From: Flavobacteriaceae bacterium
GTDB lineage: Bacteria > Bacteroidota > Bacteroidia > Flavobacteriales > Flavobacteriaceae
Reading direction: 5' to 3'
Assembly: GCA_024743095.1 (NCBI GenBank)
Contig: JANSXF010000005.1
Span: 1-64,000 of the forward strand
Length of the DNA: 64,000 nt
Part shown: in pieces, positions 897 through 18,311 of the stretch
Numbering within the stretch: position 1 is the stretch's first letter
How the letters are laid out: each line of letters opens with the position of its first letter
Translations under genes and position numbers: made by a program
Notes under the pieces: model-generated
What the model was told of the DNA's origin: nothing
The model's input: only the letters and a program-made list of their open reading frames with translations
The model's database searches: none

Positions 897-1607
897 TTAG
901 GAACCTTGAAATATTGAAATCAACGAATAATTATCCTGTGCATTTTTTTGTAACCAATCGTCCAATTGAGAAAGTTTGTCTGTTTCTTTTTGTTTTGAAT
1001 TTACAATTTCTAGCAATTGATGGACGCCCAAAACGTCTGTTACACCATCTGAAGCTATCAATACATAATCCCCAGGTTTAAAATCTATAATTAATTTATA
1101 GCCAATCTTTGCTTTCTTGATATCATTTTGAATTGCTCTAGTTACAATATGATTGTATTTCTTTGCGTTGCTTGCTTCTACAAAAACCTTATTTTCAATT
1201 AATTCATTTTTTAAATTATGCTCTACTGATTCAAAAACTATTTGACCATGTTTTATATGCCAAATTTTTACATCACCAACCCAAAAACAGTGCAGGTCAT
1301 TACTACTCTGAATAACTCCTCCCAATGTTGCGCCCATTTTAGATTCTAGCTTTTCATTTTCAAGCGTTAGAGCTTTTGTTGTTTTGTTCACCTTTTTTTG
1401 AATGCTTTCCCTATCAATATTTTGAAGAGACTTTAACTCTTCATATAGGTTTGAAGTGATAAAGTTTGCGGCATAAGCTCCATTCTTGTATCCTCCCATG
1501 CCATCTGCCAAAAGGTATAGGTTATTGTACTTACCTAGACTTTTGACCAACACGACATCTTGGTTGGATTTACGCGCCCCCTTATTTGTGATGAAATAAC
1601 TATCCAT
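897..1607 (-). CDS. PP2C-family Ser/Thr protein phosphatase (defence operon)
   Basis: Predicted cytoplasmic metal-dependent phosphatase that removes phosphate from Ser/Thr. The PP2C signature runs in order: GARKSNQD near the N terminus, LLADGMGGYKNG, GATLGG, WVGDVKIW and ASDGVTDV, which supply the metal-binding aspartates. About 236 residues is normal for a minimal PP2C domain. I chose the ATG at 1605-1607 because it overlaps the upstream ATPase gene by 8 bases (ATGGATAG) and begins just before the domain; an upstream ATG at 1640 would add 11 residues with no domain role. It is the last gene of the operon and the natural opponent of the giant kinase encoded four genes upstream. I do not recall a phosphatase in the described MADS gene set, so this may be a variant component. 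Confidence 0.9.
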   Translation of the reverse strand: MDSYFITNKGARKSNQDVVLVKSLGKYNNLYLLADGMGGYKNGAYAANFITSNLYEELKSLQNIDRESIQKKVNKTTKALTLENEKLESKMGATLGGVIQSSNDLHCFWVGDVKIWHIKHGQIVFESVEHNLKNELIENKVFVEASNAKKYNHIVTRAIQNDIKKAKIGYKLIIDFKPGDYVLIASDGVTDVLGVHQLLEIVNSKQKETDKLSQLDDWLQKNAQDNYSLISIFQGS

Positions 1608-4600
1608 CCTTTTTAACAGCATTAATTGTTGCTCCACCATGTTTAGTTACTCTTGGTCTTGTTATTATTTTTACTGGTTGATTTGTTACCCGCTTTTCAG
1701 TTGCTTTTGATGCCCACAAGAATCCTTCTCCTGGTTTTAAAATACTCATGTCTGCTGGTGACAGATTTGCTAGTTGGGTAATAGATTTTTGAATATGCTT
1801 TAACCATTGTGGACTGTTAAACTTATGCAATAATACTATTGAGCTTAATTCAATAATTTCATTTGGCAAACTTGGCGGGTCTTGACTAGCAATTAATATA
1901 CTCACCCCTTTGTGTCTCATTTCTCGAATAGCTGTAACAATGTTTCCAGTCAAATCTTTATTATCCATGTATTTATGAGCTTCATCAAATACAATGAACT
2001 TATTAAATTGATTTTCTGAACTGTTTGTTGAGGAAAAAATATCTAATGCCGTTACAAATAACCCTAGTGCCTGATCTTTATGGATGAACTCATCTCTCAT
2101 ATCAATTATGATAAGTTTTGATGGTTGTAGATACTCTGATAGATGATTTACATCTTTTACATATTTTGAGGCAAATCTAATTCTGCGGGTTGCTAAGGTT
2201 TTATCTCTTTTAGACAATAGTTCACTACCACTTATTTCTTGATTTAATGTAGGTACATTTAAATTGTTTGAATCAAATAATTCTTCTAAAATGAAATTAA
2301 TTTCGTTGATATAATCTGAAGTATTACCCACTGCATTCATCAAAAACTGCCAATCCTTTATAGATAATTCATTGGGGTTAAACAATAATGGTGCAACTTC
2401 AACCGATGGAAACTGATTCCTACGTTCTTCCACTTTACGCTCAGGACATAGAATTATAATATCATCAATATTATCCGGCTCTACATTATAAACTTCCTTT
2501 AAAATCCTTATTTCATTTTCTTGGTCGTTAGGTTGAATCATTGATGTAAACTCCGGTTCATAATCCATACTCTCACTGTAATGGAATATCACTCCCGCTA
2601 GTGGTGATGGTATCTTATTTACATTACTAAATTGTTTTAATACCATTTCAGTTAATGTGCCAATGGAATAACTTTTTCCACCGCCTTGAACTCCAAATAG
2701 ACTAATTGTATTAACCCCACTTAAATCAATAGCGATTTTTTTGTTTTGATGCGCTGTTTCACCTAAAATTCCATACTGTGAAGAAGGTCTAGAGTTACCT
2801 ATAAATATTTCAAAATCGGGTTCCGAATAAGGTTTATCAGAATTTGTTATTTTACTTTCACTAGGTGTTGTAATAAGCTCTTGAGGCTCATATACAACTT
2901 CTTGTTCTTGAATCAAGTCGTTTGACTGAATCGATTTTTCTTCTGGTTTCACATCTAGTTCTTCAGACTTGTTAGCTTGCTCTTTTTTAGGTTTATTTTC
3001 CCCTTCTTTGAGTGATTGGGATTTTTTAAGCTTTTGACTAAATGTTTTCATTCTATTATCTATTCCTAAAGCTTCTATTAACTCATTGCCCAAGTCATCT
3101 CCTTCTAATCGAATGGTATTCAAATCGGAATCGGAATCTAAAATATCTTCGATTAAATCTTTGCCCATCGTAAACATGGTTATATCGCCATCAACTATTT
3201 CTTTGAGATGTTTTTTTGATGTAGAAAAATCGTAAATAACACCTACTTTATTGAATTTTAAACTATAACCTAAATCTAAATCCAACAAGAAGTCGTTATA
3301 ATTATCATATACCAAATCACTCAAATAGTTATAACGATTTGACCTATTTATATAAAAGCCAAGTAATCCACGTAGCTCCTTATTTTTTATTTCCCTATCC
3401 AACCTATCGTTAGAGAGATTGTATTGTGGGTCGAAATGGAATCTTAATACCTCTATAGTGTTTTCAATCTGTTCCGTCATTTTCATTTTCAAGTCTTCAC
3501 GTTCTGTTTCATTAAGCGTCTTCCTGCACTTAATTTCTATAACAGTAATGAGAATTTCCCTTTTCTCTGGGTCTATAGACACCAACAAACTATCGGCCCT
3601 ACTTTTACTTTCAAAACTATTTTGGTTAAATAAATTTTGATGTAAATCGATAGGTATTAAAATGCCGTTTTCTAAAAATCCTTTCTTTTCCAACACCCTC
3701 TTTGTAAAAGCAGAACCAATTACCTCGAATGCCTTGTTTTTAGATGAGTTGAGTTGTAATACCAATGAGCTACTTAAAGCCCTTAGATCTTCCAAAAGAG
3801 ATTTAATTTTTACTTGATGTTCTTCATTGTGAATGTCCAAGTCAAACTCCTTAAAATGAGGGCCTATTAACCCTAGTACCTCTGATGTTGGCCTTGTAGT
3901 TAAATAAGATGATATTCCTGAAACTTCTTCACCAGGTACATAATCCAATAAAAATGGAATATCCTCACCATTTGAGGGTTGGTCATATACCTCTGGCCCC
4001 ATATTCTTATCAAATGTTACCACCCAGTCTGAATAATCATGTAAGTGAGTTATTAGCACTTTATCCCTTTCATTCAATACCATTTGTGTTGATGGAATTG
4101 CCTCTGTATATTCTAATTTTAGAGCACAACTTGTAAAGGATTGCATGTTCTCAAATAATTGAATACCCAATTGGCCAAGATTACTATAAACTATTGGTAA
4201 GTTATTACCCTTAATAAACCTGTTCCACTTAAATCTATTGTCATCGTTCTCAACATTGACTGTATGATCCGTAACAATGCCATTCACATAGAAATTTCTA
4301 GTGTCTAAATCTGGTTTTACCAATTCAATTTTTATTGGAAATGGGCTTATTAAAAAACTAATATGCGCATTGAACTTCAATGGATTCTTTAAATAATCTG
4401 AAATGTTATTTATTGAAAATCTTAATTTCGGAAACAGCCTGTTTTTGGACGGCTGCGAAAACACTTCAGCTTCTTCAGAAATGATTGATTGTGGATTCAA
4501 AAGACTTTTAAGTGCGTCTCCATGCTCAATGATTTTATCACTATCCTTAAATAATCTTATCTCATATTTTGTATTACTAAAATCTTTTTCTTTTTCTAAT

Positions 4601-7029
4601 TCAATTAATGCATCAGAAAACACATTGGCATCTCCAGCATTCACCAAATTCAAAATTAATTTGTCTACATAAGGATGTTGCTTTAAGTAATTTTTAATAT
4701 GGGTAACTACCTGTCTTTTACTAATATCTGTATCGATATAGTTTTCTTTTGTGATATTAAAAAGCCCTCTGAAATAATGAAGCAACTGTCTAGATATTGA
4801 TGTAAAAGACTTACTCAACTTATTGTCTACTCCTTCTAAATACAAGCCCCATCCATGTGCTAATTCACCTGAATAATTATAATTTTTTAAAGACTGATTG
4901 CCTACTATAACCAATGGATTATTGGAATAGCTAAATTCATTATTAAAAAGTACTTCTAAATTATTTGGCCATGCTTCTTTGTATTTTGAAAAACCCAATG
5001 TTTCTTGTTCCCATTTAAAAAACACATCTAACAACTGCAATATCCAAGCTAATCTTAAAGGGTGCAAAGGTGAAAAAAGTAATGCTTCTATTTTTTTACC
5101 GTCAGGTAGTTTGGTGTCTAATTTAACAACATCCAAAAATTGCAATTCACATACTAAATCTATCAAATCAGCTTTGTCTTCCTCTGAAATTTCAGTGTTG
5201 GAAATTTGATTTTGAAGTTCAGAAGTCCATGCTGTATATGCTGAAATATAATTAGAAATGTCTTCTTTGAAATTAAATATATCAGCTGTTTCGAAAACAC
5301 CATCATTGTTTTCATTAGATTCCTGAATACGTTTGAACACTTTAGTACGCAAGCTCAAGACTGTTTCCGGTGCGCTCAATGTTAGCTTGCTCTCTATAAA
5401 TTTGGAATCATTAAAATTTGTAAATGACGCATTGTTATTTAAATCTACTTTAACATAACCCAAATATCCTGCGTTATCCAAAAACACTTTTTCAATGGTT
5501 CTTAATTTAGAAGATAAAAGTATTTGATAGTTATGGTTTGGGGAATAGTTTATATGAAATACAGAGGTATGGCTAACTTTTTTATCGTCTAACCAACAAT
5601 TTGAAGGTTCAATTGGTTCGGGTATTGCAGGCTCATTTTCATGCTTTAAATCGTAAATTCTATGATTTAAAAATGCTTGAAGCACACTTTTAACCTTGTC
5701 TTTTCTTTGGTTGTCTTCCCGATCGATCGTATCATCAACCACAAAATCAAAATCTTCGGAATCACAGGTTAGTTTATATTGGAACTCATCTTTCGAGGAT
5801 TCTGGGTTATTTTTTAATTCTTCTTCCCATACTTCTTGAATTTTAATCTCTTTAAAATCATCATCATTATTCAAAATTTCTCCAAACTCGTTTTCTGCCA
5901 ATACTTTAATAAAATAGGCTCCATCATCTATTTGATTAGGCTCTAATTCTACTATAGCATCTCTGTAAGGACGATTATTAGCTGTCTTTTTTAATTTTCG
6001 CAACACAGAAATTTCTTCACCTCTTCCTCCATCAACTGCCATTAAAACAATTTTGAAATACTTCAAATCGGATATTTGATTAGGATTCGGATTAGTTGAA
6101 AATCTTATTTTAATTTTCGAGGCACTATTTGGATTAGCATATAATATTTTTCTATCATTTTCTGTTTTAAAATCACTCGATTTAATTTCTTCAACAGATA
6201 GTTTTACTTTACTAAAATCTATTTCTAAATCGGATATTTTCCAGTTTGAGAAGTTCAGGTTTTGATATTTTTGGAAGATCGTTTCTGCTATCTCCTGCTT
6301 TGTGTTTAATTGGTCTTCTTTTTTTATGAAGTCTACAATTTCACTTTGCAACGTATTCGATTCGATAGGCATGTCTGCAATCCGGTCTATCATAGGTTTA
6401 TCAAAGTTTGATAGTACCTCAACACAATCCGAATTGAATTTTATTCTCGACCTTATTTTATTGCTGTCCTCTAGTAATTTTGTATCAGGTATTAGATTTA
6501 GCTTATAGAGGTTGTTCCCTATACTTTCATCACTATAACCAATTTCTTTAAGACTTATGAGAAAGTTGATAATCTGAGTATTCTTGAGGTTATCTTGACC
6601 TATGAAATCGATAATATCTTCAATAATTGAGTATTTAAACTCTACAGGGATTTCATTAATTAATTTATTGACTAATTTTGTTTCTACTCCTTCTAAACTT
6701 AATTCCTTAAAGGTTGCATTCCCATAAGAATCTTCTGCCGCTGTTCTACTGTTAGATGGGATTAGAATTAAAAGCGGTTTGTATTGGTTGTTCCTTAATT
6801 CAATCAGTTTGGTAGCACTAATACATTTTTCATTAATATTCACCTCTGATATAATATAGGTATCTATTTCTGGAAATAGTTCATTAATTTTATCGCACAA
6901 GACATTTAGTTCTTTAAATGCCAATCCTGCAATTTTCATACAATGTCCAGGTTTAGCATTATGCAATTCTTCTTGATGCAAATCAATAACTAAATCAATA
7001 ATTTCTTTATAATATGTATTTATAATCAT
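1600..7029 (-). CDS. Giant HerA/FtsK-like ATPase with PD-(D/E)XK motif, MAD8-like
   Basis: A 1,809-residue protein. The C-terminal third is a HerA/FtsK-type ATPase: Walker A GVQGGGKS with the lysine at 1452 and Walker B FIVFDEAHKY with D1682/E1683, followed by IREMRHKG and LIASQDP segments typical of HerA. A Lys/Glu-rich linker (about 1320-1390) separates it from a long N-terminal region. Within that region, D1146 (RADSLLVS) and E1165-I-K1167 (VIEIKCRK) have the spacing of a PD-(D/E)XK nuclease core. The first 150 residues (LLILIPSNSRTAAEDSYGN) look like a recognition or helicase-loader-type domain I cannot name. From memory the architecture matches the ATP-binding protein MAD8 of MADS; that match needs a profile search. 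It starts 9 bases after the upstream gene and overlaps the phosphatase by 8. Confidence 0.8.
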   Translation of the reverse strand: MIINTYYKEIIDLVIDLHQEELHNAKPGHCMKIAGLAFKELNVLCDKINELFPEIDTYIISEVNINEKCISATKLIELRNNQYKPLLILIPSNSRTAAEDSYGNATFKELSLEGVETKLVNKLINEIPVEFKYSIIEDIIDFIGQDNLKNTQIINFLISLKEIGYSDESIGNNLYKLNLIPDTKLLEDSNKIRSRIKFNSDCVEVLSNFDKPMIDRIADMPIESNTLQSEIVDFIKKEDQLNTKQEIAETIFQKYQNLNFSNWKISDLEIDFSKVKLSVEEIKSSDFKTENDRKILYANPNSASKIKIRFSTNPNPNQISDLKYFKIVLMAVDGGRGEEISVLRKLKKTANNRPYRDAIVELEPNQIDDGAYFIKVLAENEFGEILNNDDDFKEIKIQEVWEEELKNNPESSKDEFQYKLTCDSEDFDFVVDDTIDREDNQRKDKVKSVLQAFLNHRIYDLKHENEPAIPEPIEPSNCWLDDKKVSHTSVFHINYSPNHNYQILLSSKLRTIEKVFLDNAGYLGYVKVDLNNNASFTNFNDSKFIESKLTLSAPETVLSLRTKVFKRIQESNENNDGVFETADIFNFKEDISNYISAYTAWTSELQNQISNTEISEEDKADLIDLVCELQFLDVVKLDTKLPDGKKIEALLFSPLHPLRLAWILQLLDVFFKWEQETLGFSKYKEAWPNNLEVLFNNEFSYSNNPLVIVGNQSLKNYNYSGELAHGWGLYLEGVDNKLSKSFTSISRQLLHYFRGLFNITKENYIDTDISKRQVVTHIKNYLKQHPYVDKLILNLVNAGDANVFSDALIELEKEKDFSNTKYEIRLFKDSDKIIEHGDALKSLLNPQSIISEEAEVFSQPSKNRLFPKLRFSINNISDYLKNPLKFNAHISFLISPFPIKIELVKPDLDTRNFYVNGIVTDHTVNVENDDNRFKWNRFIKGNNLPIVYSNLGQLGIQLFENMQSFTSCALKLEYTEAIPSTQMVLNERDKVLITHLHDYSDWVVTFDKNMGPEVYDQPSNGEDIPFLLDYVPGEEVSGISSYLTTRPTSEVLGLIGPHFKEFDLDIHNEEHQVKIKSLLEDLRALSSSLVLQLNSSKNKAFEVIGSAFTKRVLEKKGFLENGILIPIDLHQNLFNQNSFESKSRADSLLVSIDPEKREILITVIEIKCRKTLNETEREDLKMKMTEQIENTIEVLRFHFDPQYNLSNDRLDREIKNKELRGLLGFYINRSNRYNYLSDLVYDNYNDFLLDLDLGYSLKFNKVGVIYDFSTSKKHLKEIVDGDITMFTMGKDLIEDILDSDSDLNTIRLEGDDLGNELIEALGIDNRMKTFSQKLKKSQSLKEGENKPKKEQANKSEELDVKPEEKSIQSNDLIQEQEVVYEPQELITTPSESKITNSDKPYSEPDFEIFIGNSRPSSQYGILGETAHQNKKIAIDLSGVNTISLFGVQGGGKSYSIGTLTEMVLKQFSNVNKIPSPLAGVIFHYSESMDYEPEFTSMIQPNDQENEIRILKEVYNVEPDNIDDIIILCPERKVEERRNQFPSVEVAPLLFNPNELSIKDWQFLMNAVGNTSDYINEINFILEELFDSNNLNVPTLNQEISGSELLSKRDKTLATRRIRFASKYVKDVNHLSEYLQPSKLIIIDMRDEFIHKDQALGLFVTALDIFSSTNSSENQFNKFIVFDEAHKYMDNKDLTGNIVTAIREMRHKGVSILIASQDPPSLPNEIIELSSIVLLHKFNSPQWLKHIQKSITQLANLSPADMSILKPGEGFLWASKATEKRVTNQPVKIITRPRVTKHGGATINAVKKDG

Positions 7030-7038: not shown

Positions 7039-8604
7039 CTATTGTTGGTTCAATGGGTATCTTGGTCTTACTTTTTGCAGTATGTATGCATCGCTTAAAT
7101 CGTCGTAAAACCCTATTTGACGTAATTTTTGTTTAAAGGCCTCCACATTTTCCTTGAATGCTAAATGTGTGTTTACATTGGCATCTCTAAATCTTGGTTC
7201 GGTAATTCCATTGATTATTAATCCATATCTCTCCTTAATTCTATTCATTAATTCTTCAATAGATAAACTTCGGGTTTCAAAATGGTCGTCTTGACTTTCC
7301 AAGACCATAATCTGCACCAAGGTTTCCAATAAACGTGTTCCCATTACAAATCTTCTCGGGTGCTTTTTACTTCTTCCTTGAGCCATAAAACCTCTATCTG
7401 AATTGTTTTGACTCAAATTTGCTAACATCCCTCTATATTCCTTTAATTGTCTTTTAGATTTAGTATTGAGAATAATGGCCAAATACTTATCAAAATAGGT
7501 TTCTTCATATTTAGTGATATCATCAACCAATAACTTATCCTCTTCATCTAAATCTTTATAAAGACTATTAAATTTTACCCTGAAGTAAATTTCTTTCTCG
7601 TTACTGGTTTCCTTCAATTCTATCAATGCCTTTTCTAAATTTTCAGAATTGTCCTTATTCAATTCTAAATATTCTAAAGTCATATTAATTTTGAATGTTG
7701 CAACAATATATTTGTAAATAGAATTGTATAGTCTATCTGCATCCTCTATCGCATAGGCGGACACTCTACTTTCAAAATCATCTGTTGTATCAATTACAAT
7801 ATTCCATTCATCCTCAATATTTACTGTTCCTTTTTCAATCATTACTGGTAAAAAATGAACCAATTTTTGGGTATATAATGACATGTGGAAGGAAATGATT
7901 GTTTTTAAGTAGTCAACCAAAACACTTCTAGGTATTTTATCTTTATAAACTAATAACCTCCTAATATCATCACAGAATAATCCAGCTTGCTTTTTTAATA
8001 ATGGTTCAATTTTGTTTAATGCAGTTGCCGAATCTAAAACAAAGCGAGGTGATATTTTTGGAATGATGTTTAGCATCCCTAAACTATCTATATCGAGATT
8101 GTCTAAACTATTGAGTGTATCTGTGGTAGCATCCCAACCTTCAATTAAGAATTTTTTTAGGTCATCTTTAACTTGTGGATTAGCGCTTAACATCAAATAG
8201 ACTTGATCTGCTGAATAATAATCTCTGGCTACACTTGCGTTACGCACTCTATAACTTTCTAAATGCACAGGTCTTAATGAGGCTACTTTTTCCTTGTCGA
8301 TTTTACCACGATAAGCCATATTAACAAAATTGTTACGTATCCAAGGTTCTATAGCTTCAGAATTATCGGAATACCCTACAACCTTATTCTCATTTTCCAA
8401 CACTCCTAATGCATTCTTTAAATGATTTATCTCAATCAAAGTTTTTCCTCTTCCTCTAGATAGCTGTCTTGGTTTTTGCCCATTATATCTTAAGAGCATG
8501 AACAAATTAACAAGGGTGTATTCTATATTAATAGATTTTGCATCGATAGTACAAATGAGTTCATTACGAAACACACTTTCCTCCTTATTCATTTTAATCG
8601 CCAT
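7039..8604 (-). CDS. Conserved protein of unknown fold, MAD7-like
   Basis: A 521-residue, largely helical, charged protein with no membrane segment and no motif I recognise. It sits 2 bases after the kinase gene and 9 bases before the HerA-like ATPase gene, so the three are surely co-translated. By position between a MAD6-like kinase and a MAD8-like ATPase it corresponds to MAD7 of the methylation-associated defence system. Basic segments (RQLSRGRGK near residue 50, RSKKHPRRFVMG near residue 415) could contact nucleic acid. No function is claimed beyond membership of the complex or pathway. ATG at 8602-8604; a second ATG four codons later is also possible. Confidence 0.7.
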   Translation of the reverse strand: MAIKMNKEESVFRNELICTIDAKSINIEYTLVNLFMLLRYNGQKPRQLSRGRGKTLIEINHLKNALGVLENENKVVGYSDNSEAIEPWIRNNFVNMAYRGKIDKEKVASLRPVHLESYRVRNASVARDYYSADQVYLMLSANPQVKDDLKKFLIEGWDATTDTLNSLDNLDIDSLGMLNIIPKISPRFVLDSATALNKIEPLLKKQAGLFCDDIRRLLVYKDKIPRSVLVDYLKTIISFHMSLYTQKLVHFLPVMIEKGTVNIEDEWNIVIDTTDDFESRVSAYAIEDADRLYNSIYKYIVATFKINMTLEYLELNKDNSENLEKALIELKETSNEKEIYFRVKFNSLYKDLDEEDKLLVDDITKYEETYFDKYLAIILNTKSKRQLKEYRGMLANLSQNNSDRGFMAQGRSKKHPRRFVMGTRLLETLVQIMVLESQDDHFETRSLSIEELMNRIKERYGLIINGITEPRFRDANVNTHLAFKENVEAFKQKLRQIGFYDDLSDAYILQKVRPRYPLNQQ

Positions 8605-8606: not shown

Positions 8607-11600
8607 TTAAAAGTTTATTGGTTCGATTACTATTCTATTTTGATTGTCCTTTTTGATGCTGAAATAGTCTGCATCGTCTCTTGTTACAACCACTTCACTA
8701 TAGTTTAAGTTCTTGAGTAGGTTTTTGAAAATAATTAGCTCTACAAATTTTCCTCGAATATCATTTAGTGAGGGACTAAACCCTTGTTGAATGAAATACA
8801 GCATTTCGTATAAATCCAGGGATATGGTTAACTTGATTTGTGACTCTGTTTTATGCTTGAACATGAAACTATCTGGCTCGTATTCCAGATATTTTACCAA
8901 GTGCTCTGTGTTGTTCACCTTTAACTCGAAATCATTGAGATTAAACAGTCTAAAGGATTTGCTATATGGGTCTGTTACCTCTGTAGCTGCCAAGACCAAA
9001 CTATTTTGGTCAATATTGGTGTTATCACAACCCTCATTCAGGGCTATGGCTCTGGAAATACTTTGTATGGTTTCTTTGCCTGTGCTCTTATCATGAAGCA
9101 ATTGTACAAATTTGAAAACCGAATGGTATGGTAGCCTTAACATGAATGATGGCATCCCTTTCCCTTTTTGATTTTCACTCCTTATTAAAGTGGATTTTCC
9201 TTCGTAATAATGGTGTCTGATATAGGATTTTTGAACGCTTCTTATGCGCTCTAGAATTTCACTAGTCTTTTCGTGAACCGGCAAACGTAATTCATCATCC
9301 TTTACCTTATTGAAGATATCTATTAAGTCTATTTCCCGTTCTGAAAACTCAATAAATTCCTTTGGTTGATGCTTATCAAAAAATAAGTTTCTATCGGTTT
9401 CCGGAATTGGTACTTCTCCAATATCTGTTTCCCTTAACAACTTAATCAATCTGTCTTGGTTGCCTGAATCACCCAAAGCAGGATTGGTAATATTAAAATA
9501 ATAGTATTGCCAATAGCTTTCAGGTTTACCAGCTGCTGCTTCATAAAACTTATTGATGTCTTCACATTCATGGTCTCTGGTTAAGGTAAAAGCTATGAAA
9601 GAACGCAAGTCACGCATGGTAATGTGCAATTCTCGTTTTAAACTTACGGTACGTAAGAGCCACTCCATTCTGGTGATCACTTCATCACCCGCTGCTGAAT
9701 CGTTTAAGGATTCTACGTTGTATTTAATGAAACATTTATTCGCTAGTGAACAGCCTTCACATTTTGTCCATAGTGCTTTATTGGTCAGTTTCTTTACTTG
9801 CTTTCTGAATAAGCTCCCACCATTTTCAGTGTTTGCCACCACAGAGCGCAGGTTAAGATTGATAATCATGACTCCCTCGGGCAACTTAAAATGACCTTCG
9901 TTATAGAAATATTGGTCTATTAACTCATAAAGGTCTTGATGTTTTGATGAGGTCATTAGGAAATCCACCAAACGCCCTTCATTAATAGCAATAATGCGCC
10001 CCTCTTTGGCTCGACTGAAATCCCTAATATTTTCAAAAGGTTCAAAAAAGGTTTCCAAAACATCATTATTGGCATTATCCTCTTGGTCTTGCGACCCATC
10101 ATAATTGCTTTCGTAAGGTGTTCCTTTTATCTGGAAACGCGCTCCATTTTTATGTTGAAAGCTTTCCAAATTCTTCACCGCCTGGTTCTGTTCAATCTCT
10201 TTAATAAATGCTGTTTTACCATCACCTGCGTTACCTGTAATGATTAGTAACTTGTATCTGTCGTCTAGGATATCAGGAATTAATTTTTGATCCAATAATG
10301 ATGGTGAATACGTTAATTTATCAAACTGATTAGCCGTTTGACTAGCCCTAGTTCCGAAGTTTCCTTGTTTAGACTGACTGTAAAGCGAATTGATGTATTC
10401 TACAATGTTAAGGCCTTCTACATCTATTTTAAAACGCTTTATTTTGTCCTTATTTTTCTCAACAGTTTCAATTAAACTTTGATAGACCCTTTCCACATTT
10501 CCGTCAGTAAAGGTTTTTGCTCCACCATTCCAAAATGTCTCGCTTACAATTGATTCACTATCCACCTTGATGTTTACTTTTATTTTTTCATCAAGTTTTA
10601 TAGACGATTTATATTTTTTCAGGTTATCCTTAAACTTACTCAAGGCTTCATCAATCGTATCTTTAAGCACTACAAACCGTTGCATGTTATCTGCCAACTT
10701 GATATTACAACCTGGTTGATAAATTGTGATTTCAGTATGATATAATCGTTCTGTATTTGGCAGTTCTGTACCAGTATCTTCTTTCTCTGCCAACAAATTA
10801 TCTTCGCCAATAGCCTCTAGAGCATCCAGCATTTCTTTGGCTGACCCAAAACGTTCCTCCTTTTTGGTACTGATGGCTTTGGATAGTAAGTCTGCAAAGT
10901 TTTGAGAAATAGCTTCGTTTAACTGCTTTGGGTTATTTGCCGTTTTAGACATAATTGGCATCTTACTTGGTGTCCATGGGTATTGTTTGCAAACCAATTG
11001 GAATAAGGTGACACCTAATGAAAATACATCTGCTGATGTATCCCAATTGACATTATTGCTATCAGTTACTAAATCTGGTGCGAGATATGGATTGGTTCCT
11101 ACAAAATCTGTATTGTCCTCCGCAAAAGAGGCTACATTAAAATCAATTAACACAAAACGTTCTTGGCAGTCCCAAATAATGTTTTGGGGCTTAATATCAC
11201 GATGGTACATTGGTGGATTTTGCGACTGCATAGAAACCAAAGCTGACAGTATATCTGTTGCAAGCTGATAAACTCTATACATTGGTAATCTGGCATCGGT
11301 GCGTACATAAGTACTTAAATTATCGCCATCCAATAATTCGGTTAAGGTGTAAAATTGCCCTGATGGTGTTGTCCCATTCCAAACAAATCGTACAATATTA
11401 GGGTGACTTAACTTACTTAATGCTGCATATTCATCTTTTACAGATGCATCATTCACACTGGTATTAAAGAGCTTCATGGCATATTCCGTGCCTTGAATGG
11501 AATGCTTTACCCTAAACACTTTGGAATAGCCTCCTTTACCCAGTTCGTTGTAGATGGTGTAGTCCCCTATACGGTCCCCTTCATTTATTTCATCCAACTC

Positions 11601-13076
11601 TTTTTCGGAAACATCTGTATCTTCTTTTTTAGAGTCTTGTGTTTCTTTTTTAATTGTACTTTCAACTTCTAAGGATGTTCCTTTTTTAATGATGGCTTCT
11701 AATTCCTCTACGCTATCAATACGCTGAAACTCATCAACCAAAATGGTTTTATTACAGATATCATCAATCCAACTTGGTAAGGTTTGTTTTACTTTAGATG
11801 GCCAATTTTTTTCTGGTAATCTCCCATTTAGGTTGTTCAATTCGTAAGGCGATTTTATTGGTTCTTCTCCTACAAATAACCAATAGGTTAGAATACCAAA
11901 GGAATATAAATCGGAGGCTCTAGAAGCTTCTCCAACCGTTAATTCCAATGCGTGGTATGGTGTGGCATTTTGCTCATTAATGGTGGCTTGAACAGTATAG
12001 CCTTCTTCATTGTGATAAGTAAAATATGCTTTACCGAAATTACCTAGCATCGCATAACCACCCCTGTAATAGATATTATCCGGATTAATATCCCGGTGGA
12101 ATACATTATGCTCGTGTGCTGCTTTTAACGCTGACGCGATATTCTTTAAAATATCTATCTTTTCTGTAAAGGTAAATTCGCTTGTTTTTGCTTTGTTGCG
12201 TAAGGAATCTTCCTCTAGGAAATCTGTGATTTCATAAAAGAGATGGTTTTCTTCATCTAATTCATATTGAACATTAGTAATAAAGGGATTACTCTTGATA
12301 TGCTCTAATGCCTTAAAACCATTCTTAATCTTGAGTTCCCGTTGTTTGAGCTCTTCCGGTGATAAACCTTTTACCTGAAGCGTATATTCTTTAATACGTT
12401 TACGAATGGATGAGGTGACCCCTTTTGGTTTTGCCAGATACTCTGTATAATAATTTTCTTGGTCTACGATTTCCAGAATCTCGTGGCTATAGAGTTCCTT
12501 TTTATCTTCGGTTTTCTTTTCACTGAAACGCCCAACTAAATAATCTACTATTTTATCATGTATATCAACAATGGTGTTTTCGTACTTATCACTTGCAGGA
12601 TTTGCAATAAAATTGATTAAGCGTTTTTCTAATTGAAAACTCACTTTACCTGCTTCTTGAACAATATAAGGTTCTATACCATTGGGATACGACAAAGTCA
12701 CCATATTGACTATATAGGCTTTCCCTAAATCGTAATCAAACTCTTTGAGTTTTGAAGCTAAAATGGCCGTTTTAATACGCCCTGTTTTTAGTGGATTGGG
12801 TTTTTGGCGGTCGTTAACATACCAATAGTTATCATCGCCTTCTATACGTCCTTTCCAATCTTTATTTTCTATGTTGTAGATGGCGTGTGGTGTAACCACA
12901 ATTAGGTCGTACTCCCAATATTGGGTTTGGTTGTTACGTGGGTTAGTCGCTGCCAGTTCAATATTAGGAATCAACGTAAAACTATCTGGAAGATTGACTT
13001 CCAGAAAATCTATTAAACGTTGTTCACCTGCATTAACAACAGTCTCGAAATAAGGTGGTTTTATGATTCTTGCCAT
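8607..13076 (-). CDS. NERD / tandem Ser-Thr kinase / P-loop ATPase, MAD6-like
   Basis: A 1,489-residue signalling protein. Residues about 10-110 form a NERD nuclease-like domain (YDLIVV, then NIENKDW). A first kinase-like domain follows (about 260-460) with HRDINPDN but GNFG in place of DFG and no clear glycine loop, so it may be a pseudokinase. The second kinase domain (about 495-770) has LGKGGYSKVF, the VAIK-type lysine in YAMKLF, HRDIKPQN with D627, and DFN for DFG, and looks active. After a linker the C-terminal half has a Walker A (TGNAGDGKTAF) and a long helical region with a CxxC...C cluster. PglW of BREX type 2/Pgl and MAD6 of MADS share the NERD-kinase plan. I preferred ATG 13074-13076 (MARIIKPPYFE), overlapping hsdS by 16 bases, over an upstream start that only adds basic residues. 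Confidence 0.85.
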   Translation of the reverse strand: MARIIKPPYFETVVNAGEQRLIDFLEVNLPDSFTLIPNIELAATNPRNNQTQYWEYDLIVVTPHAIYNIENKDWKGRIEGDDNYWYVNDRQKPNPLKTGRIKTAILASKLKEFDYDLGKAYIVNMVTLSYPNGIEPYIVQEAGKVSFQLEKRLINFIANPASDKYENTIVDIHDKIVDYLVGRFSEKKTEDKKELYSHEILEIVDQENYYTEYLAKPKGVTSSIRKRIKEYTLQVKGLSPEELKQRELKIKNGFKALEHIKSNPFITNVQYELDEENHLFYEITDFLEEDSLRNKAKTSEFTFTEKIDILKNIASALKAAHEHNVFHRDINPDNIYYRGGYAMLGNFGKAYFTYHNEEGYTVQATINEQNATPYHALELTVGEASRASDLYSFGILTYWLFVGEEPIKSPYELNNLNGRLPEKNWPSKVKQTLPSWIDDICNKTILVDEFQRIDSVEELEAIIKKGTSLEVESTIKKETQDSKKEDTDVSEKELDEINEGDRIGDYTIYNELGKGGYSKVFRVKHSIQGTEYAMKLFNTSVNDASVKDEYAALSKLSHPNIVRFVWNGTTPSGQFYTLTELLDGDNLSTYVRTDARLPMYRVYQLATDILSALVSMQSQNPPMYHRDIKPQNIIWDCQERFVLIDFNVASFAEDNTDFVGTNPYLAPDLVTDSNNVNWDTSADVFSLGVTLFQLVCKQYPWTPSKMPIMSKTANNPKQLNEAISQNFADLLSKAISTKKEERFGSAKEMLDALEAIGEDNLLAEKEDTGTELPNTERLYHTEITIYQPGCNIKLADNMQRFVVLKDTIDEALSKFKDNLKKYKSSIKLDEKIKVNIKVDSESIVSETFWNGGAKTFTDGNVERVYQSLIETVEKNKDKIKRFKIDVEGLNIVEYINSLYSQSKQGNFGTRASQTANQFDKLTYSPSLLDQKLIPDILDDRYKLLIITGNAGDGKTAFIKEIEQNQAVKNLESFQHKNGARFQIKGTPYESNYDGSQDQEDNANNDVLETFFEPFENIRDFSRAKEGRIIAINEGRLVDFLMTSSKHQDLYELIDQYFYNEGHFKLPEGVMIINLNLRSVVANTENGGSLFRKQVKKLTNKALWTKCEGCSLANKCFIKYNVESLNDSAAGDEVITRMEWLLRTVSLKRELHITMRDLRSFIAFTLTRDHECEDINKFYEAAAGKPESYWQYYYFNITNPALGDSGNQDRLIKLLRETDIGEVPIPETDRNLFFDKHQPKEFIEFSEREIDLIDIFNKVKDDELRLPVHEKTSEILERIRSVQKSYIRHHYYEGKSTLIRSENQKGKGMPSFMLRLPYHSVFKFVQLLHDKSTGKETIQSISRAIALNEGCDNTNIDQNSLVLAATEVTDPYSKSFRLFNLNDFELKVNNTEHLVKYLEYEPDSFMFKHKTESQIKLTISLDLYEMLYFIQQGFSPSLNDIRGKFVELIIFKNLLKNLNYSEVVVTRDDADYFSIKKDNQNRIVIEPINF

Positions 13077-14437
13077 TGTTCTATTTCGTTTTCTATTAGG
13101 GTGATTGCTTCCTTTTCCATAAAACAAGCTGTTTCAAATTTGTTAGAATAAGATTCCACAAGTTTTGATATCTCCTCCATTTTATCATTCAATATTGGAA
13201 TTTTTAGACTCTTCAGGAAATGTTCATCTATAGTTAAAACTGCGGATCCATATATTCCAGAGCGAATATAATTTTTGATTTTTGGTGTGGACAAATACCC
13301 ATACACGTAATAAGGAGATATAAGGGTTTCATCAATAATCACACGTATCGAGTGTTGATTGACTGCACTTTTAGCATATGTATCATCAACTAGGAAGGCA
13401 GAACCCAATATCTCCTGACCAGAACTTGATACCAATATCCACTTTTTATTAACAATTAATGTCTCTAAACCTTTTGTGCTTCTACTTAAAAACTTGTTGA
13501 TCAACAATGGGTTTGATTCTGATACATTTGTGGTTGACAAGAATCTAATTCCATTTGAGCCCACATAATTTCTCCTGCCTCTTTGAGCTGTGAACATTTT
13601 TCTTAACACCAACTCCCCTAACTCGATCGACTTATAGCGGGCTTTTGACAACTCTTCATCAGCATTATTAATATTCAGGTAAAAAGAGCTGTCAAGTCGA
13701 TTGTGGTAGTTGCCCAATATGTCCTTGACGTTCTTTTTCATGTATAGTGCCTGTCTTGGTTTAAAATTTAAATTTTGATCAAATATTCTATGAGACTCTT
13801 TCAACAACTTATTAGCTTCTACACGAAGCTTTGAAGCCTCAACAATAAGATTATGAATTTGTTGTTGTTTGTTTTCTTCTGGAAGTAAAACTGGTAACCG
13901 TCCTAATTCTTCAGGTGAAATTCTTGGAACTACAGCACCGTAAATCATGGATTGGATATACTCATTTACAATTGGTGCGCTTAAATACGCATATAAAAAT
14001 CCAAAAGGTATTTGGCTAGTTTCAATTCTAATTATTTCTTGAGAGCCAATGCACCCAGAAAAACTATCATTTACCAAAGTAGTATTTCCAACAGTTCCGG
14101 CACAACTCATTAATATTTGTTTATCTCTTAAAGTCATTTCATCAACCCAAGGTGTGTATTTCACTGAAATATTTTTAGCATTATCAAGGGGTTGGGCTTT
14201 TACCATATCACTAGCAGTAATATATTGATGTGCATAATCAGTATTTTCAACAAATACTCTTTTGAAAATTCCACCTTGGTATAATTTATCTGTCAAATCG
14301 ACTAGACTTGAATTAGTAATACCTTTATCTAATAAATCTGATATCACTTTTTTACCCCTATTTAAATAATAATCAGGCTTGAATACGGTAAGTCCTTCAT
14401 TGAATCTTGATATACTAATTTGACCGCTTTTCATCAT
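13061..14437 (-). CDS. hsdS: Type I restriction-type specificity subunit (HsdS-like, MAD5-like)
   Basis: A 458-residue DNA-recognition subunit expected to pair with the methylase encoded just upstream. Two target-recognition domains are visible, each followed by a helical spacer: the first ends PRISPEELGRLPVLLP with the helix KQQQIHNLIVEASKLRVEA, the second ends SAVLTIDEHFLKSLKIPIL. That repeat of a recognition domain plus coiled helix is the HsdS plan and implies a two-part target sequence. Its ATG at 14435-14437 shares one base with the methylase stop (TAATG), so translation is coupled. No hsdR follows; instead the kinase gene overlaps its 3' end. Confidence 0.9.
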   Translation of the reverse strand: MMKSGQISISRFNEGLTVFKPDYYLNRGKKVISDLLDKGITNSSLVDLTDKLYQGGIFKRVFVENTDYAHQYITASDMVKAQPLDNAKNISVKYTPWVDEMTLRDKQILMSCAGTVGNTTLVNDSFSGCIGSQEIIRIETSQIPFGFLYAYLSAPIVNEYIQSMIYGAVVPRISPEELGRLPVLLPEENKQQQIHNLIVEASKLRVEANKLLKESHRIFDQNLNFKPRQALYMKKNVKDILGNYHNRLDSSFYLNINNADEELSKARYKSIELGELVLRKMFTAQRGRRNYVGSNGIRFLSTTNVSESNPLLINKFLSRSTKGLETLIVNKKWILVSSSGQEILGSAFLVDDTYAKSAVNQHSIRVIIDETLISPYYVYGYLSTPKIKNYIRSGIYGSAVLTIDEHFLKSLKIPILNDKMEEISKLVESYSNKFETACFMEKEAITLIENEIEQWQES

Positions 14438-16479: not shown

Positions 16480-16486
16480 TGATTGA

Positions 16487-17329
16487 CTATATTTTTATTT
16501 GGTTGTTTATGTTTTCTATACTTTTCAAAACCTCATCGTAGTTTAAAGTCTTATGGGTTTCCAATATTTGATTGATGAGTCTGCTTTCTTCTTTTTTACC
16601 CACTTCAATTGATAGCACCTCCTTGATGCTTTGTTTAGCCCCTGGATAGTTATCTAACAAGTGATTGATGTGAATTCCCAATAAGACTGCTCCACCTTTA
16701 ACTATGGTATGGTCTTCGGTGTAAACCGCTTCAAAATGTTCAAGCGATTCATCCCGATGGATTTCCAGATAGTTTTGCAGGATAAAGGCGATATCATCCG
16801 CATCCTTATTCGTTTTGTGATTACGGTCTTTCCAGGCTACTATTTTTAATAACCCAATACCTGCCAAGGATGCAATTTGAATATCGATATCCTCATCAAT
16901 ACTTACCTTTAAGGACGCCTCATTTACAGCAGAAAACCCAAGTACTGACATGGCAAACTCTTCATCTGGCGGCCAAAAGATTTTATCGTCTTCCATCATG
17001 ATATTACCAAAAGGCACGATATCTAAATCGAACTTTCCCAAATATTGGAACCGCTGCTTTTGGTCTGGGTCTTTAGTAAAATTAGGTAGTTGCGTGATGC
17101 CTTCTTCAACTGTTTTGTATTGCTCCCAATCATTGATGGTGATGGCAATATCCAAATCGTGTGTTAACCGTCCGGAACTTTCATCGTGTAACTCCATAAT
17201 AATATCCCGAGCGGTCGCCCCAATGACAAAAAAGGAAATACCCGATGTCTTAAAATAGTCGGTTAATTCCTGAAGAATAGGCTTCAATAACGGGTGGTTG
17301 AATTTTTTACTGGATATGCTGTAACTCAT
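16487..17329 (-). CDS. AbiEii-like nucleotidyltransferase
   Basis: A protein of about 280 residues with a DNA polymerase beta-type nucleotidyltransferase fold: FVIGATARDI followed by THDLDIAI provides the glycine strand and the DxD metal pair, and KDRNHKTNKDADDIAFI is the conserved helix of AbiEii/AbiGii-type proteins. Known AbiEii toxins transfer nucleotides to cellular targets; whether this member is toxic is unknown. The start at 17327-17329 (MSYSISSKKF) gives a 23-base overlap with the AbiEi-like gene upstream, the usual arrangement of this pair. An ATG at 17374 would add 15 residues and a 68-base overlap. It is placed second in the defence operon, where I would expect other components (MAD3/MAD4) in MADS as I remember it. 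Confidence 0.8.
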   Translation of the reverse strand: MSYSISSKKFNHPLLKPILQELTDYFKTSGISFFVIGATARDIIMELHDESSGRLTHDLDIAITINDWEQYKTVEEGITQLPNFTKDPDQKQRFQYLGKFDLDIVPFGNIMMEDDKIFWPPDEEFAMSVLGFSAVNEASLKVSIDEDIDIQIASLAGIGLLKIVAWKDRNHKTNKDADDIAFILQNYLEIHRDESLEHFEAVYTEDHTIVKGGAVLLGIHINHLLDNYPGAKQSIKEVLSIEVGKKEESRLINQILETHKTLNYDEVLKSIENINNQIKI

Positions 17330-18311
17330 TTTCAAATACTTGGTTAGCGATTTCCACGTTTCTACCATAGCCACTATTCTTTAAATCGGTATAAATCAAT
17401 AAGGCCGGTACCGTATTTTGATTCCAGTTGTTGTTTTGCCAAAACTTTTGGCGCACTTCTACATTACCTGTTTTATCAGGAACTAAACGCAATGTTTTTG
17501 CTATTTCAGGCAGTTCCAGATTGCTATAGATGGTAAATTCTTGCGGCCTGAAATTATCGGTTAGGATAGCTCCCGCAGACTCACCACCCCAAAGGATGTC
17601 TCTACCAGTTTGGTTTAAAAGTGTATGACGCCAATTTTGAACCATATCTGTATCTATAAACTTCATTCGGCTTCTTATAATTCGAGGTTTTAAAACGGTA
17701 TTAAACTCCACCAACCATCTTTCCAAAAGTTCTTCTTTATTTTTAAGCACTCTTTTTTCATTGGTTTTAATCAAATAGTTTAGCTCTTCCAATTCTGCCA
17801 TCACATTACTTACAGACCCCAGAGACACGCCTACCTTTTGTGCAATTGTTCGATATGAATCCTGTAAGTTTTCGGGTTCGCTTAACAGATGGAAGATAAT
17901 TTTAACCCCAGCTTCTTGAAAGGCCCTAGATTGATTGGTTAGGGTAGCAGTCCTTCTCTTCTGACCTTCAATGTATATCACTAGGTCGCCCTTTTTAACA
18001 AAAGCATTACCTGCAATATCTATATAATTAAATCCCCTCTCCTTAAGCTGATTTGCCGCTTCTTTAGATATGTATTGTGCAATTAATATTATTGGCTTGT
18101 TGCTTCGATTTCTAATTTCTTCAAGCTGTGACAATACCAATCCTTGATTAGAGGTTCTCATAGCTGATTTTGCCTCTACCACAAAATGCATGTTTTTGAT
18201 GTTCAAAATAGCATCATAGTTATCTCTTGAAGTTTCAATATCAATCGGTATATTGATAAGGTTCTCCAGATTTGCTACTGCTTCATAAATAAAATCGTTA
18301 TTTCGATACAT
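17307..18311 (-). CDS. AbiEi-like antitoxin/regulator with winged HTH, MAD1-like
   Basis: A 334-residue protein. The N-terminal 110 residues form a small nuclease-like fold (YDAILNIKNMHFVVEAKSA, then GFNYIDIAGNAFV) as found in AbiEi-type proteins; it is probably not catalytic here. Residues about 130-195 hold a winged helix-turn-helix (SYRTIAQKVGVSLGSVSNVMAELEEL). The C-terminal part ends with a conserved RRxxL-type segment and FWQNN. It is first in the operon and overlaps the nucleotidyltransferase gene, so it probably represses its own promoter; the nested palindrome 9 bases upstream of its ATG fits. In MADS the first gene, MAD1, is also an HTH protein. The ATG is at 18309-18311. Confidence 0.8.
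   Translation of the reverse strand: MYRNNDFIYEAVANLENLINIPIDIETSRDNYDAILNIKNMHFVVEAKSAMRTSNQGLVLSQLEEIRNRSNKPIILIAQYISKEAANQLKERGFNYIDIAGNAFVKKGDLVIYIEGQKRRTATLTNQSRAFQEAGVKIIFHLLSEPENLQDSYRTIAQKVGVSLGSVSNVMAELEELNYLIKTNEKRVLKNKEELLERWLVEFNTVLKPRIIRSRMKFIDTDMVQNWRHTLLNQTGRDILWGGESAGAILTDNFRPQEFTIYSNLELPEIAKTLRLVPDKTGNVEVRQKFWQNNNWNQNTVPALLIYTDLKNSGYGRNVEIANQVFENELQHIQ

What the first reader, a model, noticed from the sequence alone, without database searches (positions are those of the whole stretch)
897..18311. Eight-gene MADS-like defence operon with AbiE-like pair and PP2C phosphatase
Genes are packed with overlaps of 1-23 bases or gaps under 10 bases, all on the minus strand. The set is methylase, specificity subunit, NERD-kinase-ATPase, unknown protein and HerA-like ATPase, which I match from memory to MAD2, MAD5, MAD6, MAD7 and MAD8. 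The regulator fits MAD1. HsdR, PglZ and a DISARM-type helicase are absent. The MAD3/MAD4 places are taken by an AbiEii-like nucleotidyltransferase, and a phosphatase gene is added at the end. This may be an undescribed variant or subtype.
Basis: partly seen in the sequence, partly recalled or inferred. Interest (0 to 1): 0.85.

Follow-up and report, generated by a model that had tools for sequence, protein, structure and literature searches.

The report
MADS-like defence operon with exchangeable front
Flavobacteria and their relatives carry a multi-gene operon that looks built to mark the cell's own DNA by methylation and attack unmarked DNA; it has gained a phosphatase that may switch its kinase off, and its control region with matching regulator (here a borrowed toxin-antitoxin pair) appears to have been swapped many times.

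Summary
The operon is real: eight minus-strand genes, 897-18311. Five match NCBI MADS families (MAD2, 6, 7, 8 above cut-off; MAD5 396.5 against 400 bits). MAD3 and MAD4 were not found and MAD1's place holds an unrelated regulator, so it is a MADS-like variant, not canonical MADS. Among 84 related loci, mostly Bacteroidota, 80 hold the end of MAD8 and 76 of these carry a PP2C phosphatase gene directly after it. MAD6, MAD7 and MAD8 are homologues of SspF, SspG and SspH; MAD8 has an invariant PD-(D/E)xK motif and a HerA domain. AbiEi plus nucleotidyltransferase is a front cassette: its putative operator GTTCA-N7-TGAAC sits at the AbiEi start in 18 of 19 testable loci and in 0 of 44 with other fronts. 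DUF6577-type fronts have another repeat in 19 of 22. The tree needs 12 front changes. AbiEi-nucleotidyltransferase pairs outside MADS share the operator type (11 of 13). Phage defence, methylation, repression and kinase-phosphatase antagonism are inferred, not shown.

The parts
897..1607 (-). PP2C-type Ser/Thr phosphatase, last gene of the operon (ORF runs to 1640; conserved Met at 1607)
   Evidence: Pfam PP2C_2 43.2 bits (cut-off 24); aspartates D28, D46, D123, D198, D236 invariant in 77 of 77; directly after MAD8 in 76 of 80 loci
1600..7029 (-). MAD8-like protein, 1809 aa, SspH/DndH-like: PD-(D/E)xK nuclease region and C-terminal HerA domain
   Evidence: NF047742 234.7 bits (cut-off 175; matches residues 28-222); hhalign to SspH probability 96.9
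3529..3594 (-). Codons of the PD-(D/E)xK motif of MAD8 (D1146, E1165, K1167)
   Evidence: invariant in 85 of 85 MAD8 rows; model of 985-1330 has McrC and HamA among its top hits, none significant
2671..2694 (-). Walker A of the MAD8 HerA domain (GVQGGGKS)
   Evidence: profile against PDB sequences hits TdpA, HerA and YjgR at E 0.0016-0.019
7039..8604 (-). MAD7, SspG/DndG-like protein, 521 aa
   Evidence: NF047733 607.6 bits (cut-off 410); hhalign to SspG probability 98.1, E 6.5e-14
8607..13076 (-). MAD6: NERD nuclease domain, pseudokinase, Ser/Thr kinase, SspF-like P-loop ATPase (ORF runs to 13127; conserved Met at 13076)
   Evidence: NF047741 738.7 bits (cut-off 460); hhalign to SspF probability 99.7, E 6.1e-27
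12735..13034 (-). NERD domain of MAD6
   Evidence: Pfam NERD 59.8 bits; D74 86/86, E87 84/86, K89 86/86
10827..11561 (-). Catalytic kinase domain of MAD6
   Evidence: Pfam Pkinase 198.8 bits; K552, D644, N649, D662 invariant in 86 of 86
13061..14437 (-). MAD5, HsdS-like specificity subunit with two target-recognition halves
   Evidence: NF047740 396.5 bits (cut-off 400, just below); Pfam Methylase_S 48.8 bits; half swap against L030
14437..16479 (-). MAD2, N6-adenine-type DNA methyltransferase
   Evidence: NF047738 829.1 bits (cut-off 720); Pfam N6_Mtase 138.6 bits
16487..17329 (-). AbiEii-like nucleotidyltransferase (ORF runs to 17374; conserved Met at 17329)
   Evidence: Pfam AbiEii 31.7 bits (cut-off 22.5); D73, D75, D118, D191, D194, K177, R184 invariant in 29 of 29
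17307..18311 (-). AbiEi_2-family regulator: N-terminal PD-(D/E)xK-like domain, winged helix, C-terminal AbiEi domain
   Evidence: Pfam AbiEi_2 78.7 bits (cut-off 21); model mean pLDDT 85.7; N-terminal fold hits weak
18337..18353 (-). Putative AbiEi operator GTTCATTGTCACTGAAC, with further half-sites GTTCAT at 18365-18370 and AATGAAC at 18320-18326
   Evidence: only exact match in the own genome
18357..18364 (-). TATATTTG, fits the Bacteroidota -7 element TAnnTTTG (consensus recalled), lying between operator half-sites
   Evidence: sequence; similar in most of the AbiEi upstreams printed

Best explanation
This is a Bacteroidota form of a MADS-like system that marks self DNA by methylation and attacks unmarked DNA. 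Steps inferred from homology: (1) MAD2 with MAD5 methylates adenines at a split site set by the two halves of MAD5. (2) MAD6, MAD7 and MAD8 form an SspFGH/DndFGH-type restriction machine. MAD8 translocates DNA with its HerA motor and cuts with its PD-(D/E)xK domain, MAD7 binds target DNA, and MAD6 is the ATPase/kinase sensor hub with a NERD nuclease as second effector. (3) The added PP2C phosphatase keeps the MAD6 kinase or its substrates dephosphorylated until infection. (4) The front of the operon is a self-contained control cassette. AbiEi binds GTTCA-N7-TGAAC over the promoter and represses the whole operon; the nucleotidyltransferase it normally neutralises rides along as a backup growth-arresting toxin. 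Shown here: gene content, conservation of the active-site residues examined, homology of MAD6-8 to SspFGH, linkage of PP2C, and matching of regulator class to repeat class. Inferred: every activity, the repression, and phage defence.
For: MAD2/6/7/8 above NCBIfam cut-offs. PP2C after MAD8 in 76 of 80 loci, same strand, mostly overlapping by 1-4 bases; metal-ligand aspartates of PP2C kept in 77 of 77, catalytic kinase residues of MAD6 in 86 of 86, acidic motif residues of the nucleotidyltransferase in 29 of 29. MAD6/7/8 align to SspF/G/H with hhalign probabilities 99.7, 98.1 and 96.9, against 0.2 for a control pair. MAD8 D/E/K motif 85 of 85. Operator in 18 of 19 AbiEi loci, 0 of 22 DUF6577, 0 of 7 small-HTH, 0 of 15 other, 0 in 642,665 other bases of the AbiEi loci; a different repeat in 19 of 22 DUF6577 loci, 0 of 17 AbiEi and 0 of 8 small-HTH loci. 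Precedents seen in passages: KKP, in which a PP2C antitoxin restrains defence kinases (PMC11341870); AbiEi repressing its own operon through inverted repeats (PMC7319586); NERD plus inactive and active kinase on DndF (PMC10853773).
Against: No experiment. Loci with intact MAD6 kinase residues but no PP2C exist: L013, L055, L070, L091, and also the canonical L016 and the viral contigs L119 and L120, so the phosphatase is not strictly required. Foldseek hits for the MAD8 nuclease region and the AbiEi model are not significant (best E 0.05 and 0.02). The shared operator could partly reflect common descent of the AbiEi fronts. E46 of the AbiEi nuclease-like motif is missing in 9 of 32, so that domain may be inactive. 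No shared repeat was found for small-HTH fronts, and 11 fronts stayed unassigned. The methylation target is unknown.
Confidence: 0.6

Rival explanations
1. It is simply MADS as published, with Bacteroidota members already covered under 'MADS-like systems' (a phrase recalled from the abstract of Maestri et al. 2024), so nothing but the annotation is new.
For: Four of the five shared proteins pass the NCBIfam MADS cut-offs, so the curated families already reach this lineage. The MADS paper is not held and may list such loci.
Against: MAD3 is over cut-off in 0 of 39 genomes of related loci (40 asked, one not held) and finds nothing in the own genome. No ORF of the 84 loci has the L016 MAD4 as best BLAST hit. 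PP2C is absent from the one canonical locus, L016. None of the papers in the listings I saw appears to join the MADS defence system with PP2C or AbiE (one search listed only 12 of 582, many of them plant MADS-box papers), in an open-access library only.
Confidence: 0.3
2. The AbiE pair and PP2C are chance neighbours or passengers, not working parts of the defence system.
For: The AbiE pair occurs without MADS in other genomes and only 28 of 84 loci have both genes. PP2C is missing in 4 of 80 loci.
Against: PP2C is directly downstream of MAD8 in 76 of 80 loci, whereas the own genome has only two PP2C_2 genes in 4.04 Mb. In 61 of the 72 loci whose front is held, a regulator of one of three classes was found, and two of the classes have their own repeat at the promoter. 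Catalytic residues are kept.
Confidence: 0.1
3. The AbiE pair is an addiction module that stabilises the operon (loss of the operon frees the toxin) rather than its repressor cassette.
For: AbiEi and nucleotidyltransferase form a type IV toxin-antitoxin pair in other bacteria (PMC3985639, start of abstract in the listing). Some related loci sit on plasmids.
Against: Three loci keep AbiEi and its operator without the nucleotidyltransferase (L037, L072, L083) and none keeps the toxin alone; 30 other loci use DUF6577 or small-HTH fronts in which no such toxin gene was found. The control role is therefore the shared one.
Confidence: 0.3
4. PP2C opposes the nucleotidyltransferase or another target rather than MAD6: phosphorylation of the toxin by MAD6 silences it and PP2C frees it.
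For: Phosphorylation regulates or neutralises nucleotidyltransferase toxins of the MenT kind (PMC11375011 and PMC7205606, starts of abstracts in the listing).
Against: PP2C is present in 76 loci but the nucleotidyltransferase in 28, so this cannot be its general role.
Confidence: 0.1

Closest known systems
MADS (methylation-associated defence system, MAD1-MAD8)
   Same: MAD2, MAD5, MAD6, MAD7, MAD8 in the same order; four above the curated cut-offs and MAD5 just below
   Different: MAD3 AAA ATPase and MAD4 not found, no excisionase-like MAD1; PP2C added; regulator cassette of another family
SspFGH / DndFGH restriction modules
   Same: MAD6 C-terminal half, MAD7 and MAD8 are homologous to SspF, SspG and SspH; NERD plus tandem kinases is reported for some DndF (PMC10853773, passage)
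   Different: No phosphorothioation genes among the eight; self-marking presumably by an HsdMS-like methylase; PP2C added
AbiE type IV toxin-antitoxin systems
   Same: AbiEi_2 regulator and AbiEii-like nucleotidyltransferase in overlapping order; inverted repeat at the promoter
   Different: Joined in one gene row to a MADS-like operon; AbiEi has an extra N-terminal PD-(D/E)xK-like domain (weakly supported)
KKP kinase-kinase-phosphatase defence module
   Same: Ser/Thr kinase and PP2C phosphatase in one operon (PMC11341870, passages)
   Different: Here pseudokinase and kinase are fused to NERD and an ATPase, and the phosphatase is the last gene; no separate PfkA and PfkB genes
BREX type 2 (Pgl), PglW
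   Same: PglW has NERD, pseudokinase and kinase (PMC12839542, section 23); MAD6 matches the PglW model at 221.7 bits
   Different: Far below the PglW cut-off of 990 bits; no PglZ or BrxC model among the NCBIfam and Pfam hits of the eight proteins

Membership tests
MADS | MAD2 methyltransferase, MAD6 kinase, MAD7, MAD8 above NCBIfam cut-off | tested here: met
   829.1/720, 738.7/460, 607.6/410, 234.7/175 bits
MADS | MAD5 specificity subunit above NCBIfam cut-off | tested here: inconclusive
   396.5 against 400 bits, full-length match
MADS | MAD3 AAA ATPase | tested here: not met
   no match in own genome; over cut-off in 0 of 39 genomes of related loci (weak matches in 25)
MADS | MAD4 | tested here: not met
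   no room for it between MAD2 and MAD5; no ORF of the 84 loci has L016 MAD4 as best BLAST hit; own genome none, though no control rang in that search
MADS | MAD1 excisionase-like HTH as first gene | tested here: not met
   first gene is AbiEi_2
MADS | methylation-dependent protection against phage | not testable with these tools
   needs methylome and phage assays
SspFGH/DndFGH | homologues of all three subunits F, G, H in order | tested here: met
   hhalign 99.7, 98.1, 96.9 percent; control 0.2
SspFGH/DndFGH | phosphorothioation genes as partner | tested here: not met
   none among the NCBIfam and Pfam hits of the eight proteins; rest of the genome not searched for them
AbiE type IV toxin-antitoxin | AbiEi with winged helix and AbiEi domain followed by AbiEii nucleotidyltransferase | tested here: met
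   Pfam AbiEi_2 and AbiEii above cut-off; acidic motif residues 29 of 29
AbiE type IV toxin-antitoxin | inverted repeat in the promoter region | tested here: met
   18 of 19 loci; binding itself not tested
AbiE type IV toxin-antitoxin | toxicity neutralised by AbiEi | not testable with these tools
   needs expression assays
BREX | PglZ and BrxC/PglY | tested here: not met
   no such model among the NCBIfam and Pfam hits of the eight proteins, (PADLOC lists of three proteins were capped at 25); rest of the genome not searched
KKP | PP2C gene followed by two separate kinase genes | tested here: not met
   one fused protein, phosphatase gene last

The most novel reading that the evidence does not exclude
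The operon has three layers of control. Its front is an exchangeable cassette (promoter, operator and matching repressor, with or without a toxin) that has been swapped repeatedly. Here a complete AbiE toxin-antitoxin module has become the operon's switch, so that losing AbiEi during infection both raises the restriction machinery and frees a second, growth-arresting effector. The MAD6 kinase and PP2C form a phosphorylation switch that arms an SspFGH-type nuclease guided by methylation. The same kind of AbiE cassette also fronts other likely defence genes (STAND ATPases, an MmeI-like restriction gene; 3 of 14 places looked at), which would make it a general plug-in front end for defence operons.
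Probability: 0.35. Interest if true: 0.8.

Novelty: new variant of a known kind. Interest (0 to 1): 0.63.

Why it matters
How MADS restricts DNA is listed as unknown in a 2026 review (PMC12904381, passages). Homology of MAD6-8 to SspFGH gives a concrete, testable engine: a HerA translocase with a nuclease domain and an ATPase sensor. A phosphatase kept in 76 of 80 copies makes the role of the kinase testable by simple mutants. Matched exchange of regulator and operator shows how a large defence operon could change its control without changing its core, and gives a DNA signature for finding such operons.

Tried and rejected
AbiEii gene as a stand-in for MAD3/MAD4: rejected, since MAD3/MAD4 in L016 lie between MAD2 and MAD5 and the pair here lies before MAD2. 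HsdR partner: none in the own genome, though the contig ends 896 bases past PP2C. MAD7 and MAD8 in phage records: no match. E. coli: no near match to the canonical core. MAD7 profile against PDB sequences: nothing significant; AbiEi: nothing significant, weak winged-helix hits among others. Canonical MADS loci beyond L016 could not be collected, so 'PP2C is absent from canonical MADS' rests on one complete canonical locus, plus three viral contigs (L119, L120, L122) and four distant loci (L020-L023, of which L022 and L023 lie on short contigs). A palindrome search for small-HTH fronts found no shared repeat. The search for Dnd-associated family TIGR03236 found nothing anywhere, controls included, so SspFGH references were taken from loci that the MAD7 model had touched weakly and checked by PADLOC (L160 and L162 clear; L161 G weak; L159 G no hit). 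Four G, three H and four F rows went into the profiles, weak ones included. PADLOC candidate system PDC-M21 (hits to PP2C and, weakly, the nucleotidyltransferase) was not followed up.

Limits of counts: one search found 94 relatives and kept the best 80; the 84-locus set is those 80 plus L109 and plasmid loci L013-L015. Near-copies (such as L049/L050, L075/L076, L087/L088) count singly there; L050, L075 and L088 were left out of the tree, with L017-L019 (same contigs as L082, L030, L029), L021-L023, L110 and rows of 480 residues or fewer. L121 is the same contig as L109 and was not counted. Genes were called as greedy ORFs and classes assigned by best BLAST hit at 1e-4 anywhere in the locus. 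The tree is the 'quick' method with a long-branch warning. hhalign E-values are for one pair, not a database.


Full report
What is there. Eight ORFs on the minus strand fill 897-18311. From the promoter side: AbiEi_2 regulator (17307-18311), AbiEii-like nucleotidyltransferase (16487-17329), MAD2 methyltransferase, MAD5 specificity subunit, MAD6, MAD7, MAD8, PP2C phosphatase (897-1607). NCBIfam scores: MAD2 829.1 (cut-off 720), MAD6 738.7 (460), MAD7 607.6 (410), MAD8 234.7 (175), MAD5 396.5 (400, just short). Pfam supports N6_Mtase, Methylase_S, NERD, Pkinase, PP2C, AbiEi_2 and AbiEii above their cut-offs. Start codons chosen from conservation give junctions from a 23-base overlap to a 9-base gap.

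Canonical comparison. A Piscinibacter plasmid (L016) has the MADS genes in order MAD1 to MAD8; MAD1, 3, 4, 5 and 7 were checked there and are above cut-off, MAD2, 6 and 8 were placed by annotation, position and alignment. There MAD3 (an AAA ATPase) and MAD4 lie between MAD2 and MAD5. In the window MAD2 and MAD5 overlap by one base. MAD3 finds nothing in the own genome and is over cut-off in 0 of 39 genomes that hold related loci (40 asked, one not held; weaker matches in 25 of 39, the best, 144.9 bits, in the genome of L070 but on another contig). MAD4 finds nothing in the own genome, in a search whose controls also stayed silent.

The lineage. A scan of a collection of 84,980 species genomes with a MAD7 alignment gave 94 relatives, of which 80 were kept: by record title all Bacteroidota except one Bacillus (L055). 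With one viral contig (L109) and three plasmid loci (L013-L015) this is a set of 84. The order MAD2-MAD5-MAD6-MAD7-MAD8 recurs; in gut Bacteroidales extra genes can sit between MAD5 and MAD6. PP2C follows MAD8 on the same strand in 76 of the 80 loci whose MAD8 end is held; the four without are two Hymenobacter loci, the Bacillus locus and one Chitinophagales MAG. PP2C was not found in L016, in the viral contigs L119, L120, L122 or in the distant loci L020-L023. The own genome has two PP2C_2 genes in all. On the MAD7 tree (86 rows, quick method) PP2C presence needs 3 changes. In samples of the phylum and the family MAD7 is rare: 6 of 395 and 6 of 397 genomes have a match, 1 and 4 above cut-off, the own genome included in each.

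Working parts. In MAD6 the first kinase domain lacks the DFG aspartate in 84 of 86 rows (Asn in 79), so it reads as a pseudokinase; the second keeps K552, D644, N649 and D662 in 86 of 86, and the P-loop lysine is kept in 86 of 86 and the NERD D/E/K in 86, 84 and 86 of 86. In MAD8, D1146, E1165 and K1167 are kept in 85 of 85, as are the Walker A lysine and Walker B acids. The five PP2C aspartates are kept in 77 of 77 and the nucleotidyltransferase motif residues in 28 or 29 of 29. The model of MAD8 985-1330 (mean pLDDT 75.9) has McrC and HamA nucleases among its top PDB hits at E 0.05-0.33, which is suggestive only.

Link to SspFGH. Profile comparison with SspF, SspG and SspH from loci L159-L162 (PADLOC names them clearly in L160 and L162) gives 99.7% and E 6.1e-27 for MAD6, 98.1% and 6.5e-14 for MAD7, 96.9% and 1.9e-10 for MAD8; the control pair MAD7-AbiEi gives 0.2%. 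The two SspH proteins also hit PADLOC's mad8 profile. In the MAD8 match the D, E and K of the motif align with D, E and K of SspH. A published survey describes DndF with NERD and tandem inactive and active kinases, DndG as triple winged helix and DndH with REase and HerA/FtsK (PMC10853773; sections 19, 21, 22 and passages read). The restriction half of this system is therefore most simply an SspFGH/DndFGH-type engine.

The front cassette. Among the 84 loci the front is AbiEi plus nucleotidyltransferase in 28, AbiEi alone in 3, the toxin alone in 0, a DUF6577/AbiEi-like regulator in 22, a small HTH in 8, unassigned in 11 and not held in 12. On the tree the five front classes (the fifth being MAD1 of L016 and L122) need 12 changes, against a shuffled mean of 29; starred branches force at least 7 for the AbiEi plus toxin class. 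A palindrome GTTCA-N7-TGAAC lies at the start of AbiEi in 18 of 19 loci with at least 60 bases held upstream (the exception, L048, has a shorter AbiEi ORF), in 0 of 22 DUF6577, 0 of 7 small-HTH and 0 of 15 other loci, and nowhere in 642,665 other bases of the AbiEi loci. In the window it is at 18337-18353, just downstream of TATATTTG and flanked by further half-sites; it is the only exact match in the own genome (one further site with 3 mismatches, and the reversed control pattern gave one hit). DUF6577 loci carry another inverted repeat, [CT]GGCA...TGCC[AG]AA...TTG, in 19 of 22, with 0 of 17 AbiEi and 0 of 8 small-HTH loci. Regulator and operator thus seem to travel together. AbiEi of Streptococcus agalactiae represses its own operon through inverted repeats (PMC7319586, passages).

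Origin of the cassette. A search of 299 genomes of the own family (Flavobacteriaceae, judged from contigs shared by length between L029, L030 and the family's G520, G624) found AbiEi relatives in 20, the own genome included. Of 14 places fetched for context, 13 have the nucleotidyltransferase next to AbiEi, and 11 of those 13 have GTTCA-N7-TGAAC close upstream (L148 and L157 do not). L158 has no nucleotidyltransferase and its palindrome is about 260 bases away. In two, an nSTAND-type ATPase gene follows within 3 bases (L146, L147), in one an Eco57I/MmeI-like gene 87 bases on (L152), and in L156 a type I R-like gene lies 1.4 kb on; not every neighbour of the rest was scanned. None of the 14 stretches shows a MADS core next to the pair within the few kb fetched.

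Specificity swapping. MAD2 is 95.9% identical between the window and Gelidibacter (L030), but MAD5 is 92.7% identical in its first recognition half and 22.7% in the second; against Yeosuana (L029) both halves differ (34.0 and 21.9%) while MAD2 is 95.4%. Against L052 both halves agree (72.8, 82.7%). MAD5 thus seems to evolve by exchange of recognition halves, as type I specificity subunits do (recalled).

Mechanism. The most likely reading is given in Best explanation. The kinase-phosphatase step leans on KKP, where the PP2C-family phosphatase acts as antitoxin to two kinases and a phage protein inhibits it (PMC11341870, passages). What is shown is linkage and conservation; what is inferred is every activity.

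Novelty. None of the papers in the listings I saw appears to join the MADS defence system with PP2C or AbiE (long hit lists were seen only in part: 15 of 42, 12 of 582), and no paper of the library mentions DUF6577. The MADS paper itself is not held, so I cannot exclude that it lists Bacteroidota loci. I call this a new variant of a known kind.

Noticed in passing
L145 (own genome contig C30, about 66964-68779): A second AbiEi-nucleotidyltransferase pair in the own genome (32% and 28% identical) with GTTCACGAATAATGAAC upstream; a sodium:alanine symporter gene lies behind it.
   Followed up: partly
L146:985-5001, L147:1009-5001, L152:1-4079: AbiE cassettes directly in front of other likely defence genes: nSTAND ATPases and an MmeI/Eco57I-like methylase gene.
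   Followed up: partly
L092:4345-5856, L094:1521-3014, L097:3929-5611, L104:4019-5872, L109:3904-5673: Schlafen AlbA_2 plus HATPase_c_4 proteins between MAD5 and MAD6 in gut Bacteroidales; L094 also has a CpXC protein and L096 a WG-repeat protein there.
   Followed up: partly
L051:1410-4532: A 1040-aa UvrD-like helicase gene between MAD2 and MAD5 in an Aureispira MAG.
   Followed up: no
L119:256-20855: Viral contig with two MAD2-like methyltransferase genes, MAD5-8 and a 1227-aa protein behind MAD8; no MAD3/MAD4 hit.
   Followed up: no
L122:7821-20204: Rearranged MADS-like operon in a viral contig: MAD1-like, short MAD6, MAD7, MAD2, MAD5, MAD8.
   Followed up: no
L055:1682-17000: A Bacillus record carries a Bacteroidota-type core (MAD7 60% identical) without PP2C, next to a phage-integrase-like ORF: a possible cross-phylum transfer.
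   Followed up: partly
window 17307-18311, residues 1-120: AbiEi N-terminal domain looks PD-(D/E)xK-like (weak hits to NucS/EndoMS, CdiA-CT, MspJI) with D33 30/32, E46 23/32, K48 30/32.
   Followed up: partly
window 20973-22181 and 18565-19227: 402-aa protein with a HEPN domain about 2.7 kb upstream of the operon; nearer lies a possible AAA ATPase (Pfam hit below cut-off) that looks like a mobile-element gene (impression only).
   Followed up: no
L013:27162-28587: The Hymenobacter plasmid locus lacks PP2C but has 139-aa and 329-aa proteins with no NCBIfam or PADLOC hit right behind MAD8, perhaps a substitute.
   Followed up: no
window 1-18000: G+C of the operon stretch is about 0.30-0.39 against mostly 0.37-0.43 over the next 15 kb, which would fit horizontal acquisition.
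   Followed up: no
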